Part shown: positions 60,750 to 64,000 of the stretch, one piece after another
Layout: each line of letters starts with the position of its first letter
Position numbering within the stretch: the stretch's first letter is position 1
Source: Desulfovibrio piger
GTDB taxonomy: Bacteria > Desulfobacterota > Desulfovibrionia > Desulfovibrionales > Desulfovibrionaceae
Length of the DNA stretch: 64,000 nucleotides
Direction of reading: 5' to 3'
Assembly: GCF_900116045.1 (NCBI RefSeq)
Contig: NZ_LT630450.1
Coordinates: forward strand, 1-64,000
Made by a program: the position numbers and the translations under genes
The notes under the pieces: generated by a model
The model's input: the letters and a program-made list of their open reading frames with translations, nothing else
What the model was told of the DNA's origin: nothing
The model's database searches: none

Positions 60750-61853
60750 ATGGCGACCATCATCACGAAAGATAGCCTGCGTTCCAGCGTGGAAGCGGCC
60801 ACGGGCGGCCTGTGCACGGTACTGTATGACGATGCTGGGCATCCCAGCTTCATGCGCCGCATCCCGAAAATGCGGATTGAGGACCTGTATCCCGACCTGG
60901 GCCTGACGGGTACGCATCCGGCCTTCATCGTCAACGGCGTCGAGAAGTCGGAACTTTTCATCGGCATGTATCCGGCGTCGCTGGTGGACAGCTACGCGGT
61001 GAGCCTGCCCGGTATGGACCCGGCCAACACGCTGAACTTCGACAGCGCGGTGACGTACTGCAAGAACAAGGGCACGGGCTGGCACCTGATGACCAACGCG
61101 GAATGGGCGCTGCTGGGTGCGCTGGGCATCAAGACGGGGTTCCAGCCGCGCGGCAACACCTACTGGGGCCAGCACCACGAAGCCAAGCACGAGACCGGTA
61201 CGCTTGCCCCCGGAGCCAGTGAGCTGGGTGTCATTAACGACGATTTGCACGGACGCACGCTGACCGGCTCCGGGCCTGTGAGCTGGCGGCATGACAACAG
61301 TCCTGCGGGGATCGCGGACCTTGTGGGTAATGTGTGGGAGTGGACTGGCGGTATGCGTCTGAACGCCGGGGAAATCAACATCATCAAGGATAACGATGCG
61401 GCGGCCCATGACGTGGACATGAGCGCGGACAGCAGTGCCTGGAAGGCCATTCTGCAGAACGGCACGCTGGCCACGCCCGGCACGGCGGATACACTGAAAT
61501 ATGACGCCGTGGGTGGCAACGGCACAGGTGCGGTCAAGCTGAATAAGACCATCACCAGCCAGTACCCCAGTTCTGACACCACGGCATCGTCTTCCTGCGC
61601 CTTTAAGTCCATGACGGCGGAAAGCAGCGTCACGGTGCCTGCCCTGCTGAAACTGCTCTCTCTGTATCCCGTGGACACGACCAATCCTGTGGGTTCCATC
61701 TGGATGCGGAACAGCGCTGCGATTTGGCGTTGCGCGGCGGCAATGACTACGATAGCAGCGGCGCGGGCCTTTTTGGCCTCGGTGTCAGGGACACTCGTAC
61801 GCTCCGCAGTAGGGATGTGGGGTTCCGTCCCGCTTTTATCCTGTAATTCCTGA
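60750..61853 (+). CDS. Retroelement target protein, C-type-lectin/FGE fold, frame offset at 3' end
   Basis: 367 residues as read. The FGE/C-type-lectin fold is clear (FDSAVTYCKNKGTGWHLMTNAEWALLGAL, GIADLVGNVWEWTGGMRL, YPVDTTNPVGSIWMRNS). Normally this would run into LALRGG...VGFRPAF, the ligand-binding end written by the retroelement. Here that peptide is in the frame beginning 61718, one base off, ending FRPAFIL at 61844. One extra base between 61713 and 61718 would restore NSGCDLALRGG. As given, the last 45 residues are off-frame. GGAGG precedes the ATG. It probably displays on the tail fibre. Confidence 0.85.
   Translation: MATIITKDSLRSSVEAATGGLCTVLYDDAGHPSFMRRIPKMRIEDLYPDLGLTGTHPAFIVNGVEKSELFIGMYPASLVDSYAVSLPGMDPANTLNFDSAVTYCKNKGTGWHLMTNAEWALLGALGIKTGFQPRGNTYWGQHHEAKHETGTLAPGASELGVINDDLHGRTLTGSGPVSWRHDNSPAGIADLVGNVWEWTGGMRLNAGEINIIKDNDAAAHDVDMSADSSAWKAILQNGTLATPGTADTLKYDAVGGNGTGAVKLNKTITSQYPSSDTTASSSCAFKSMTAESSVTVPALLKLLSLYPVDTTNPVGSIWMRNSAAIWRCAAAMTTIAAARAFLASVSGTLVRSAVGMWGSVPLLSCNS
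61725..61834 (+). repeat. Variable repeat (VR) of the target gene
   Basis: A 110-bp repeat from TGGCGTTGCGCGGCGGC to TTCCGTCCCGCT, matching five further copies downstream without any indel. Variable codons cluster at 61742-61759 and 61781-61816, separated by an invariant 21-bp block encoding GAGLFGL. Identity with cassette A extends 9 bp further upstream (GCTGCGATT); downstream homology stops after CCCGCT. Confidence 0.88.
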
Positions 61854-61893
61854 TACTTGAATCCTGAATCCCTGACCTTGCCATCATATATGG

Positions 61894-61951
61894 AAAAAAT
61901 TGCGGGATATGCTATTAACCCTTACCGGCGAAGCCGGTCGCAATTTTTTTT
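61894..61951 (+). terminator. Two-layer hairpin/terminator between target gene and avd
   Basis: AAAAAATTGCG (61894-61904) pairs perfectly with CGCAATTTTTT (61939-61949). Inside lies a second hairpin ACCGGC-GAA-GCCGGT. Extra T follows. It may stop target-gene transcription or act as the structured element often found near variable repeats. Confidence 0.75.
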
Positions 61952-61971
61952 GTAAAAAGGATATCCGTGCC

Positions 61972-62340
61972 ATGACTGAATCCGTTGAAGGCGGCCTCAT
62001 TCTGCAACAGAAATGGGAAGACCTTTCCGTCTATCTCTTTTCCTGCGTGCTGCGGGATATGCCGAAAAACGACCGGTTCACACTGGGGGCGGATATCCGG
62101 GCGACTGTCTGGGAAGTGGAAGCGGCCCTGGTGCAGCTTTCGCTCCGAGCCGGAAACCGTTGGGTTTTACTCAACACGGTGGACGTGAAGGCAAAAGTCC
62201 TTCTGGCTATGATACGGCTGGGAATCCGCGTCGGAGCAATCCCGGAAAAGCGGTATGAGCCGATAGCTGCCCGTCTGGTGGAAATCGGAAAAATTGTCGG
62301 TGGCCTCAAGAAAACGGGCGGGGAACGCCCGCGCCGCTGA
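61972..62340 (+). CDS. avd: DGR accessory variability determinant (Avd)
   Basis: 122 residues, almost all helical and basic (LQQKWEDLSVYLFSCVLRDMPKNDRFTLGADIRATVWEVEAALVQLSLRAGN), the four-helix Avd/S23-like fold that forms a pentamer and binds the retroelement reverse transcriptase. AAGGAT lies upstream. It sits between the target gene and cassette A, its usual place. Confidence 0.85.
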   Translation: MTESVEGGLILQQKWEDLSVYLFSCVLRDMPKNDRFTLGADIRATVWEVEAALVQLSLRAGNRWVLLNTVDVKAKVLLAMIRLGIRVGAIPEKRYEPIAARLVEIGKIVGGLKKTGGERPRR

Positions 62341-62368
62341 CAGGGAACGACCCGGATATGCTGCGATT

Positions 62369-62478
62369 TGGCGTTGCGCGGCGGCAGATACAATAATGGC
62401 AGCGGCGCGGGCCTTTTTGGCCTCAATCTGAATAACAATCGGACCAATCGCAATAGGAATGTGGGGTTCCGTCCCGCT
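62369..62478 (+). repeat. Cassette A, likely template repeat (TR)
   Basis: A 110-bp copy, the most adenine-rich of the six: variable codons read RYNNGS and NLNNNRTNRNRN, with eight AAY codons, as expected of a template. It lies directly after avd, the canonical TR place, and shares the 5' flank GCTGCGATT with the target. Against the target repeat it differs at 22 positions, 12 of them A in this copy, so it is not the sole parent. Confidence 0.65.
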
Positions 62479-62690
62479 CTCGCCCCAAAGCGTCAGATGC
62501 CCGGTGGTCACGGCCTCCGGGACGGTACAGGGGCAAAAGGGGGTTCGTTTCCTCCCCGATGCGAAGCGGGGAAATAACAGCGCTCCCGTGCGGCAAGTAG
62601 GCGACGAACGCGGCGCGGGAGCCCATTTTTTGATAAGAAAGTTGACGGTTAAAAACCGCCAGCAGGGAACAGCCCGGATATGCCACTTTC
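62479..62690 (+). other. Conserved inter-cassette segment with three hairpins
   Basis: Recurs after every cassette (62801-63011, 63122-63331, 63442-63653, 63764 on). Hairpin 1 starts 22 bp after each core (62500, 62822, 63143, 63463, 63785): stem CCCGG..CCGGG with tetraloop CACG or TACG. Hairpin 2 is CCCCG..CGGGG. Hairpin 3 is GCTCCCG..CGGGAGC, followed by T6 in units A-C, so it may end a template RNA. Two sequence types exist: after A, C, D (CTCGCCCC) and after B, E (TTCGCTCC). Confidence 0.7.
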
Positions 62691-62800
62691 TGGCGTTGCG
62701 CGGCGGCAATTACAACAATAGCAGCGGCGCGGGCCTTTTTGGCCTCAATGTCAGAAACACTCGTACGCTCCGCAATAGGGATGTGGGGTTCCGTCCCGCT
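62691..62800 (+). repeat. Cassette B, closest relative of the target variable repeat
   Basis: 110 bp. Differs from the target repeat at 8 positions; B carries A at 7 of these (62714, 62717, 62747, 62748, 62755, 62756, 62775) and T at the eighth (62711). In its lectin frame it encodes LALRGGNYNNSSGAGLFGL. 5' flank CACTTTC shared with cassette C. Confidence 0.85.
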
Positions 62801-63011
62801 TTCGCTCCGAGTCGTCGGAAGCCCGGAGGCTACGGCTTCCGGGACGGTACAGGAGCAAAAGGGGGCTGTTTCCTCCCCGGTGCGAAGCGGGGAAACAACA
62901 GCGCTCCCGTGCGGCAAGTAGGTGACGAACGCGGCGCGGGAGCCCATTTTTTGACAAGAAAGTTGACGGTTCAAAGCCGCCAGCAGGGAACAGCCCGGAT
63001 ATGCCACTTTC

Positions 63012-63121
63012 TGGCGTTGCGCGGCGGCGCTTACTACAATAGCAGCGGCGCGGGCCTTTTTGGCCTTTCTCTCCCGTTTGGTAGAGGATATGTACGCCAG
63101 ACTGTGGGGTTCCGTCCCGCT
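63012..63121 (+). repeat. Cassette C, variable-repeat-like
   Basis: 110 bp, encodes ALRGGAYYNSSGAGLFGL then SLPFGRGYVRQTVGFRPAL. Few adenines in the second variable block, so it looks like a diversified product rather than a template. Flank type A/C/D. Confidence 0.8.
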
Positions 63122-63331
63122 CTCGCCCCAAGTCGTCAGATGCCCGGCGGTCACGGCTTCCGGGACGGTACAGGGGTAAAAGGGGGCTGTTTCCTCCCCC
63201 GGTGCAAGGTGGGGAAACAACAGCACTCCCGTGCGGCAAGTAGGTGACGAACGCGGCGCGGGAGCCCATTTTTTGACAAGAAAGTTGGCGGTGTATGCCG
63301 TTGACGGGGAACGGCCTGGATATGGAGCGCC

Positions 63332-63441
63332 TGGCGTTGCGCGGCGGCTATTTCGGGCATGGCGTAGGCGCGGGCCTTTTTGGCCTCCGCCTCGCGTCGT
63401 TTCGGGATTTTCACGCGCCGTCTGTGGGGTTCCGTCCCGCT
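63332..63441 (+). repeat. Cassette D, variable-repeat-like
   Basis: 110 bp, the most diverged: encodes ALRGGYFGHGVGAGLFGL then RLASFRDFHAPSVGFRPAL. Almost no adenine remains at variable positions. Flank type A/C/D. Confidence 0.8.
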
Positions 63442-63653
63442 CTCGCCCCAAGTCGTCAGATGCCCGGCGGTCACGGCTTCCGGGACGGTACAGGGGTAAA
63501 AGGGGGCTGTTTCCTCCCCGGTGCAAGGTGGGGAAACAACAGCGCTCCCGTGCGGCAAGTAGGTGATGAACGCGGCGCGGGAGTTCTGTTTGTGTAATAA
63601 GGATGTTGGCGGCATACAGCCGTCAAAGGGGAACGATCCGGCTTGTCTCGGTG

Positions 63654-63763
63654 TGGCGTTGCGCGGCGGCAGCTACAATCGTAGTTCCGGCGCGGGCCTT
63701 TTTGGCCTTGACCTTGAATGCTACCGTAGCAACCGCAATAGACGTGTGGGGTTCCGTCCCGCT
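63654..63763 (+). repeat. Cassette E, variable-repeat-like
   Basis: 110 bp, encodes ALRGGSYNRSSGAGLFGL then DLECYRSNRNRRVGFRPAF. Flank type B/E. It is the last copy before the reverse transcriptase start. Confidence 0.8.
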
Positions 63764-63920
63764 TTCGCTCCGAGTCGTCGGAAGCCCGGAGGCTACGGCT
63801 TCCGGGACGGTACAGGAGCAAAAGGGGATCGTTTCCTCCCCGGTGCGAAGCGGGGAAACAGCAGCCTCCCCGCGCGGCAAGTAGGCAACGAACGCGGCGC
63901 GGGGAATCTGGGGAAGACAG

Positions 63921-64000
63921 ATGCCGAAGACTGCCCGTCATCTATGGGAACATGTGCTGGAGTGGGAGAACCTGCTTACAGCGGCCAAAGAGGCTTCGCG
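63921..64000 (+). CDS. DGR reverse transcriptase, N-terminus only (runs off window)
   Basis: 27 codons are visible: MPKTARHLWEHVLEWENLL then TAAKEASR. The pattern LW..V..WENLL.A...A is the typical N-terminus of retroelement reverse transcriptases (group II intron-like). GGGGAAG lies seven bases before the ATG. The catalytic YxDD region would be outside the window. It would copy template RNA with errors at adenines and write the cDNA into the target repeat together with Avd. Confidence 0.75.
   Translation, partial: MPKTARHLWEHVLEWENLLTAAKEAS

What the first reader, a model, noticed from the sequence alone, without database searches (positions are those of the whole stretch)
61725..64000. Diversity-generating retroelement with a tandem array of five template/variable-like cassettes between avd and RT
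A typical DGR has one template repeat near avd/RT and one or a few variable repeats at 3' ends of target genes. Here five extra 110-bp copies, all ungapped against the target repeat, lie in a row at 322, 321, 320 and 322 bp spacing, each with its own variable codons, conserved downstream hairpins and a terminator-like stem. They are not attached to full target genes. They could be alternative templates, an archive of earlier variants, or donor cassettes for recombination into the target. I know of no described DGR with this layout, but I could not search.
Basis: partly seen in the sequence, partly recalled or inferred. Interest (0 to 1): 0.95.

Follow-up and report, generated by a model that had tools for sequence, protein, structure and literature searches.

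The report
Retroelement with five alternative templates
A predicted prophage in a Desulfovibrio-related bacterium carries a gene-diversifying retroelement with five different template cassettes in a row instead of one, and it likely copies now one and now another of them, with errors, into the end of a single predicted tail gene, so that the gene would both switch and mutate.

Summary
Between avd and a verified DGR reverse transcriptase (from 63921) lie five 112-nt repeats, each followed by a structured Sp RNA: a model built only from four single-template relatives finds it after all 5 cassettes here and all 7 in Ca. Desulfovibrio intestinipullorum (L089). The genome's one variable repeat (VR) differs from cassette c2 at 8 sites, 7 of them template adenines; a near-identical viral contig, with c1 unchanged, has a VR differing from c2 at 9 sites, all adenines. 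Cassette-to-cassette differences are not adenine-biased (1 of 192 ordered pairs), so the array looks like donors, not an archive. Of 38 scored target relatives, 4 carry c5-type tails and 33 fit c1 best; one 95.6% identical to L089's target has an L089-c3-like tail, though L089's own VR comes from c7. Eleven further loci have arrays of 3 to 15 cassettes, ten in one Bacilli-related RT clade; in five of these the first unit is a stop-bearing null cassette, and in two the target VR is a copy of it. Nine open-access literature searches found no description. Verdict: a real, recurrent multi-template DGR with likely template switching.

The parts
60750..61853 (+). target gene, FGE-sulfatase/C-type-lectin-like, predicted phage tail protein; its VR end is one base out of frame here
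   Evidence: PF03781 E 2e-7, phrog_2889, unknown function, frame comparison
61725..61836 (+). variable repeat (VR)
   Evidence: 93% to c2, 7 of 8 mismatches at c2 adenines
61972..62340 (+). avd accessory gene
   Evidence: bAvd PF22296 51.1 bits; ORF 61900-62340, ATG read from the sequence
62369..62480 (+). cassette c1 template repeat (adenine-rich, canonical position)
   Evidence: repeat D2; identical 112/112 in L269
62478..62627 (+). Sp RNA of c1
   Evidence: model R1 135.6 bits; Rfam RT-14 46.3 bits, below its cut-off of 48.1
62643..62661 (+). 5' hairpin before c2 (hairpins also fold before c1, c3, c4, c5)
   Evidence: folds; stem
62691..62802 (+). cassette c2 template repeat, donor of the present VR content
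62800..62948 (+). Sp RNA of c2
   Evidence: R1 139.1 bits; no Rfam match at E<=1
63012..63123 (+). cassette c3 template repeat
63121..63270 (+). Sp RNA of c3
   Evidence: R1 119.3 bits
63332..63443 (+). cassette c4 template repeat, adenine-poor (5 A in 112)
63441..63589 (+). Sp RNA of c4
   Evidence: R1 125.1 bits
63654..63765 (+). cassette c5 template repeat (RT-proximal)
   Evidence: c5-type tails in relatives
63763..63910 (+). Sp RNA of c5
   Evidence: R1 135.0 bits
63921..64000 (+). start of the DGR reverse transcriptase, which runs on to 64967 of the contig

Best explanation
This is a diversity-generating retroelement whose template has been multiplied into a tandem array of five distinct template cassettes, each with its own structured Sp RNA, that likely serve as alternative donors for error-prone rewriting of the one variable repeat of the target gene. 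Shown: every cassette keeps the A-free 5' flank and core, an open VR frame and the Sp fold; the VRs of the window and of a near-identical contig differ from c2 almost only at adenines and do not fit the canonical c1; a close relative of the target carries a c5-type tail. Inferred: each cassette is made into its own template RNA, which the RT-Avd complex reverse-transcribes with errors at adenines and homes into the VR, so the element has a coarse step (which cassette) and a fine step (A-to-N mutation). Also inferred: switching between templates in the shared A-free flank and core gives mosaics; the window's own VR has c2 content but a 5' junction shared only with c1.
For: VR from c2: 7 of 8 mismatches at A (p 2.3e-5). 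L269 VR against window c2: 9 of 9 at A (p 5e-8), with c1 identical 112/112 and the VR-to-c1 interval 528/532. L089 VR from its c7: 8 of 10 at A (p 9.4e-6). In other arrays the donor sits at another position: L124 c3 11 A/1 non-A, L138 c2 17/0, L147 c2 13/3, L257 c3 10/0, L268 c4 9/5. The Sp model from four single-template relatives hits all 5 window cassettes (119-139 bits) and all 7 of L089 (73-104 bits), full length. Sp pairs kept in 157 of 160 cells (window) and 217 of 224 (L089), against 31-54% and 36-51% when slid. Cassette-to-cassette A bias at p<0.01 in 1 of 192 ordered pairs, as many as for G. Tails of target relatives: c5 best for block 2 in P0005, P0006, P0012, P0041 by 13-21 log units; P0026, 95.6% identical to the L089 target, carries an L089-c3-like tail. 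12 of 12 window and L089 cassettes and 27 of 27 ordinary cassettes of five Bacilli arrays are stop-free; the 27 have lengths divisible by 3, 102-114.
Against: No transcription or activity data. In block 2, none of 38 scored relatives fits c2, c3 or c4 best, and 33 fit c1 best, so only c1, c2 and c5 have support as donors here; c3 has only block 1 of P0012. Relatives with c5-type tails could carry a single c5-like template; their DNA context was not available. VR against c2 has one non-A mismatch, and one of the two differences between the P0026 tail and L089 c3 is not an adenine change. In L141 and L268 several cassettes, not one, are A-biased towards the VR; L141 and L117 have no clean donor (22/6 and 21/9). 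c1 to c4 differences are A-biased (23/24 A against 13/26, p 0.0003), as if c4 once passed through the RT. R1 did not hit the five Bacilli arrays searched with it, so their Sp was not tested by it. The target is out of frame in this genome, so the element may be inactive here. Fold energy of one Sp alone is no better than shuffles (z -0.36).
Confidence: 0.82

Rival explanations
1. Archive: the cassettes are old VR variants written back into the array by mutagenic homing or gene conversion.
For: c4 is adenine-poor and differs from c1 at 23 of 24 adenines. c2 and c5 carry the VR-type T near the 3' boundary rather than the TR-type C of the single-template relatives examined.
Against: Only 1 of 192 ordered cassette pairs is A-biased, while the best cassette-to-VR pairs are. 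Ordinary Bacilli cassettes differ by in-frame length steps, which A-mutagenesis does not make, and stay A-rich. The block-1 residues of c5 recur in another relative's target (P0041), so c5 is not private to this lineage.
Confidence: 0.12
2. One working template plus duplicated relics: tandem duplication left non-functional copies that drift.
For: In most arrays only one cassette is the clean donor of the present VR; duplication is a common way to make such repeats (recalled).
Against: Relics should drift evenly: 5' flank and core show 0 differences in 370 compared sites (3' flank 6 in 210) while the Sp shows 160 in 1420. Sp pairs are kept through compensatory changes, frames stay open, and donors sit at different positions in different arrays.
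Confidence: 0.06
3. The cassettes serve different target genes rather than alternative versions of one target.
For: DGRs with more than one TR and several VRs are listed in print (PMC6642488, passages).
Against: The genome has one VR for all cassettes; its only other FGE-sulfatase match lies 0.79 Mb away and has no cassette match.
Confidence: 0.04
4. Assembly artefact.
For: Several draft contigs end near the RT, where arrays would lie, so such repeats may trouble assemblers.
Against: Single 2.81-Mb contig at 100% completeness; the cassettes are 68-93% identical to the VR and differ from each other, not collapsed copies; the same c1 in an independent contig; arrays in eleven other loci.
Confidence: 0.02

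Closest known systems
Bordetella phage BPP-1 type DGR (mtd-avd-TR-brt)
   Same: Order target-avd-template-RT, structured spacer 3' of the template, A-restricted changes, IMH-like 3' boundary (layout as stated in the introduction of PMC12875486, passages seen)
   Different: BPP-1 has one template; here five template+Sp units in tandem, with the present VR content from the second
DGRs with several TRs in the survey PMC6642488 (passages)
   Same: More than one TR in one element
   Different: The passages tie extra TRs to many VRs (2 TRs with 6 merged VRs; 6 TRs with 91 pairs) and call the latter atypical with few A-to-N changes; no tandem array serving one VR is described in the passages seen
Rfam RT-14 RNA (RF02921)
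   Same: Full-length model matches to the Sp of c1, c4, c5 and L089 c1
   Different: 46.3, 39.5, 44.1 and 42.2 bits, all below the cut-off of 48.1; c2 and c3 gave no match at E<=1
Silent-cassette antigenic variation (pilin- or VSG-type gene conversion; recalled, no call)
   Same: Many silent partial copies, one expression site, mosaic products
   Different: Transfer here would go through RNA and an error-prone RT, as the A-restricted changes indicate, not by DNA gene conversion

Membership tests
Diversity-generating retroelement | RT of the DGR clade with (I/V/L)GxxxSQ in domain 4 (motif as given in PMC3521204, passage) | tested here: met
   RVT_1 E 1.8e-21; LGALTSQ and YMDD in the translation; lies among relatives with TR/VR pairs
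Diversity-generating retroelement | TR/VR pair with mismatches at template adenines | tested here: met
   c2 to VR 7 of 8; c2 to L269 VR 9 of 9
Diversity-generating retroelement | Accessory avd gene | tested here: met
   bAvd PF22296 51.1 bits, cut-off 40
Diversity-generating retroelement | Target with VR at its 3' end in a C-type-lectin/FGE fold | tested here: met
   PF03781; many relatives end ...GFRPAFIL in frame. In this genome the VR is one base out of frame. No structure was predicted
Diversity-generating retroelement | Structured Sp 3' of the template | tested here: met
   R1 hits after all five cassettes
Diversity-generating retroelement | One template serving the VR(s) | tested here: not met
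   Five template units, one VR. The usual state, not strictly definitional
Diversity-generating retroelement | Mutagenic retrohoming activity | not testable with these tools
   Only inferred from two distinct VRs that differ from c2 at adenines
Diversity-generating retroelement | Stem-loop just after the VR | tested here: inconclusive
   A GC stem with T run at 61924-61938, about 90 nt after the VR, and weaker ones overlapping the VR end
Rfam RT-14 RNA | Score above the gathering cut-off | tested here: not met
   Best 46.3 against 48.1 bits

The most novel reading that the evidence does not exclude
A retroelement with a heritable template library: reverse transcription picks one of several silent RNA templates, can switch between them mid-copy, and mutates adenines on the way, giving one gene combinatorial choice plus point hypermutation. 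In the related Bacilli arrays the library also holds a stop-bearing null cassette whose copying into the VR turns the target off, so the same machine would act as a reversible on/off switch.
Probability: 0.45. Interest if true: 0.95.

Novelty: new variant of a known kind. Interest (0 to 1): 0.86.

Why it matters
DGRs are described as one template feeding one or a few variable repeats, so their reach is set by that template's adenines. A library of templates that differ in length, constant residues and adenine content would let an element jump between separate regions of sequence space and then search locally, much as cassette antigenic variation does but through RNA. It makes open questions testable: how an RT-Avd complex chooses a template, whether it switches mid-copy, and whether a null cassette works as a phase switch. 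It may also warn DGR finders: a pipeline that takes the repeat with the highest adenine bias as primary (PMC8144416 methods, passages) could report one template and hide an array, and several draft contigs end where an array would lie.

Tried and rejected
Cassettes as coding exons: the open frame across c2-c3 (62459-63247) is due to the 321-bp spacing; spacings of 322 and 320 break the frame. Rejected.

Cassettes as products of homing into each other: tested by A bias in 192 ordered cassette pairs of five arrays; one pair passes p<0.01 for A, one for G, none for C or T. Only units of equal length were compared, VR included where present: window 6 of 6, L089 7 of 8, L141 12 of 12, L268 5 of 5, L158 5 of 11.

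Sigma-70 promoter per cassette: one site found against 0.7 expected; nothing usable. Terminators: T runs follow the last stem in c1-c3, but the scan did not flag them (its loop limit is 8).

MFE folding of one Sp: no better than shuffles; covariation and a covariance model were used instead. In one search one L089 cassette (c4) was compared out of register because it is three bases shorter; one search aligned it with gaps.

Other repeats: those downstream of the RT in L115 are coding-like repeats, not cassettes, and the L135 repeats are not cassette-like; L256 has three cassettes downstream of its RT.

More arrays in viral contigs: an Sp pattern gave 0; the VR/TR pattern gave only the contig already found; a Bacilli RT query gave two distant loci that I did not examine further. 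Of the 80 contigs found with the target I examined only L269. Phage collection: one distant hit to the target body only. A first RNA alignment (A2) was cut short and dropped; L093 was then left out of the model.

Literature: 9 searches, passages in nine papers and a tenth without matches showed no tandem TR array; the paper under doi 10.1093/nar/gkx1150, a large DGR survey as I recall it, is not held, so absence in print is not shown.
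Full report
WHAT IS THERE. The window ends inside a diversity-generating retroelement (DGR) of a predicted tailed prophage: tape-measure, baseplate and tail-fibre matches lie upstream, then the target gene (60750-61853, FGE-sulfatase family), avd (bAvd), five repeat cassettes and, just past the window, the reverse transcriptase (63921-64967 of the contig). The genome is one 2.81-Mb contig with six copies of the repeat: one VR and five cassettes. 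A genome of the same genus group has a contig of the same length as that of Candidatus Desulfovibrio intestinipullorum (locus L089).

EACH CASSETTE IS A COMPLETE TEMPLATE UNIT. A covariance model (R1) of the Sp RNA was built from four single-template relatives only (L009, L011, L012, L091). It finds a full-length Sp after each of the 5 window cassettes (119-139 bits) and each of the 7 cassettes of L089 (73-104 bits), and none after the VR; the only other window hit is a weak antisense one (17.9 bits). It did not hit the Bacilli arrays given to it. In an alignment of 16 Sp regions RNAalifold pairs 42 positions, 20 with compensatory changes. For 32 of these pairs, standard pairs are kept in 157 of 160 cells among the window's cassettes and 217 of 224 among those of L089, against 31-54% and 36-51% when one arm is slid. 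Hairpins fold before each of the window's five cassettes; in L089 the folds vary. All 12 cassettes are stop-free in the VR frame.

WHERE THEY DIFFER. Between window cassettes the 5' flank and core do not differ (0 of 370 compared sites), the 3' flank differs at 3%, the Sp at 11%, and the two variable blocks at 46% and 64%. Neutral relics would not look like this.

WHICH WAY INFORMATION FLOWS. VR against c2: 8 mismatches, 7 at c2 adenines (p 2.3e-5). Against c1, the cassette in the canonical place: 23 mismatches, 12 at adenines. A viral contig (L269) carries almost the same element (VR-to-c1 interval 528/532, c1 112/112, though the upstream 3.6 kb matches at only 3260 of 3581 columns); it ends inside the Sp of c1, so its array cannot be seen. 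Its VR differs from the window's c2 at 9 sites, all adenines (p 5e-8), and from its own c1 at 25 sites, 10 of them not adenines. So two distinct VRs come from c2, not from the neighbouring c1. L089's VR comes from its last cassette, c7 (8 of 10). Cassette-to-cassette differences, by contrast, are A-biased in 1 of 192 ordered pairs, c1 to c4 in the window, and G-biased in 1. The array feeds the VR; with that one exception there is no sign of the reverse.

SWITCHING. The target was searched against 5.8 billion proteins (2045 hits, 120 listed). 53 of 120 tails fitted my pattern; I scored 38 of these 53, with listed identities of 75% or more (P0039, 75%, was left out by oversight). Under an A-to-N model, block 2 is best explained by c5 in P0005, P0006, P0012 and P0041 (by 13-21 log units), weakly and poorly by c5 in P0020 (0.4), and by c1 in the other 33, several of which fit c1 imperfectly. 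No tail was best explained by c2, c3 or c4 in block 2. P0041 is c5 in both blocks; P0012 is c3-like in block 1 and c5 in block 2; P0006 is c2-like, then c5. Simulated block-2 tails were assigned back correctly 500 of 500 times for each cassette. P0026 is 95.6% identical to the L089 target but its tail, compared by eye, is like L089 c3 with two differences, one of them not an adenine change; L089's own VR is from c7. Caveat: the DNA around these proteins was not available, so some may have a single template of that type. The window's own VR shares the nine bases 5' of it with c1 alone, while its variable blocks are c2: either two homing events or a switch within the 17-base A-free flank. The VR is one base out of frame with the gene body; intact copies exist in relatives.

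HOW WIDESPREAD. Of 80 related genome loci (379 relatives found, best 80 kept), 8 show arrays of four or more cassettes: L089, L114, L124, L138, L141, L147, L158, L162; two more show two units (L117, L132). Of 80 viral loci (209 relatives, best 80 kept) none does. 59 of the 80 genome loci and 65 of the 80 viral loci have at least 2 kb upstream of the RT, so these are lower bounds. Of 20 further stretches from the order of L158 (44 of 385 genomes matched; stretches from 18 genomes), L257 (downstream of the RT) and L268 have four cassettes each and L256 three. In 13 stretches from 12 genomes of the window's family, only the L089 contig has an array. On an RT tree of 153 rows the array label (11 rows; L256 and the two-unit loci were not labelled) needs 7 changes, at least 6 forced by supported branches, so arrays were likely gained or lost repeatedly. 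Nine of the 11 labelled rows lie in one supported clade of 52.

THE BACILLI ARRAYS. L124 c3, L138 c2, L147 c2 and L257 c3 are cassettes with nearly all mismatches to their VR at adenines; L268 c4 is less clean, L141 and L117 are unclear, and in L141 and L268 several cassettes are A-biased towards the VR. In five arrays (L124, L138, L147, L158, L162) all 27 ordinary cassettes have lengths divisible by three (102 to 114) and no stop, so they differ by whole codons. The first unit of each of the five is a T-rich, adenine-poor null cassette of 95-99 nt with in-frame stops. In L158 and L162 the target VR is a 98% and 100% copy of it, truncating the target. In L162 none of the null's 13 adenines is changed, and in L158 one of 9, so these copies may not have come through mutagenic RT; short-read assembly error is also possible.

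MECHANISM. Shown: anatomy, direction, RNA conservation, open frames, different donors in different arrays. Inferred: separate template RNAs, reverse transcription by RT-Avd primed in the Sp (as described for BPP-1 in the introduction of PMC12875486, passages seen), choice among templates, and switching in A-free blocks. Not known: what sets the choice.

COMPARISON. The tested features of a DGR are met, with the stem-loop after the VR inconclusive and activity untested. The difference is the number and arrangement of templates. Nine literature searches and passages in nine papers (one search had no matches) showed multi-VR elements, TR variants between strains (PMC4891356) and elements listed with 2 or 6 TRs (PMC6642488), but no tandem array for one VR. 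The library is open-access only.

CHANGE AFTER CHECKING. Confidence was lowered from 0.83 to 0.82 because the check added that in L141 and L268 the donor is not unique and that one P0026 difference is not an adenine change; L256 was added as an array.

Noticed in passing
L124:4025-4123, L138:3777-3871, L147:569-663, L158:2263-2358, L162:4002-4098: T-rich, adenine-poor null cassette with in-frame stops as first unit of five Bacilli-type arrays; in L158 and L162 the target VR is a near-exact copy of it, truncating the target.
   Followed up: partly
L017, L099, L101, L123 upstream of the RT: Long self-similar stretches (57-59% over about 400-1300 nt), some reaching into the RT, suggest two RT-type modules side by side in these DGRs.
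   Followed up: no
P0003, P0007, P0021, P0025, P0032, P0033, P0038, P0047: Relatives of the target whose tail runs straight into translated Sp-like sequence, as if VR and a cassette had fused; could be recombination or assembly.
   Followed up: no
window 62801 and 63764 against c1, c3, c4: c2 and c5 carry the VR-type T where c1, c3, c4 and the single-template relatives examined have the TR-type C just inside the 3' boundary; if that base guards templates from homing, c2 and c5 might be acceptors too.
   Followed up: partly
L147:1542-2870: An ATPase-like ORF of 442 aa (named by eye) sits inside the cassette array.
   Followed up: no
L257 and L256, downstream of the RT: Arrays of four and three cassettes placed 3' of the RT; in L257 the VR is 5' of the RT.
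   Followed up: partly
L002:10006-10230: Two identical 76-nt copies that look like tRNA genes, 149 nt apart, about 3 kb past the DGR; not run through a tRNA finder.
   Followed up: no
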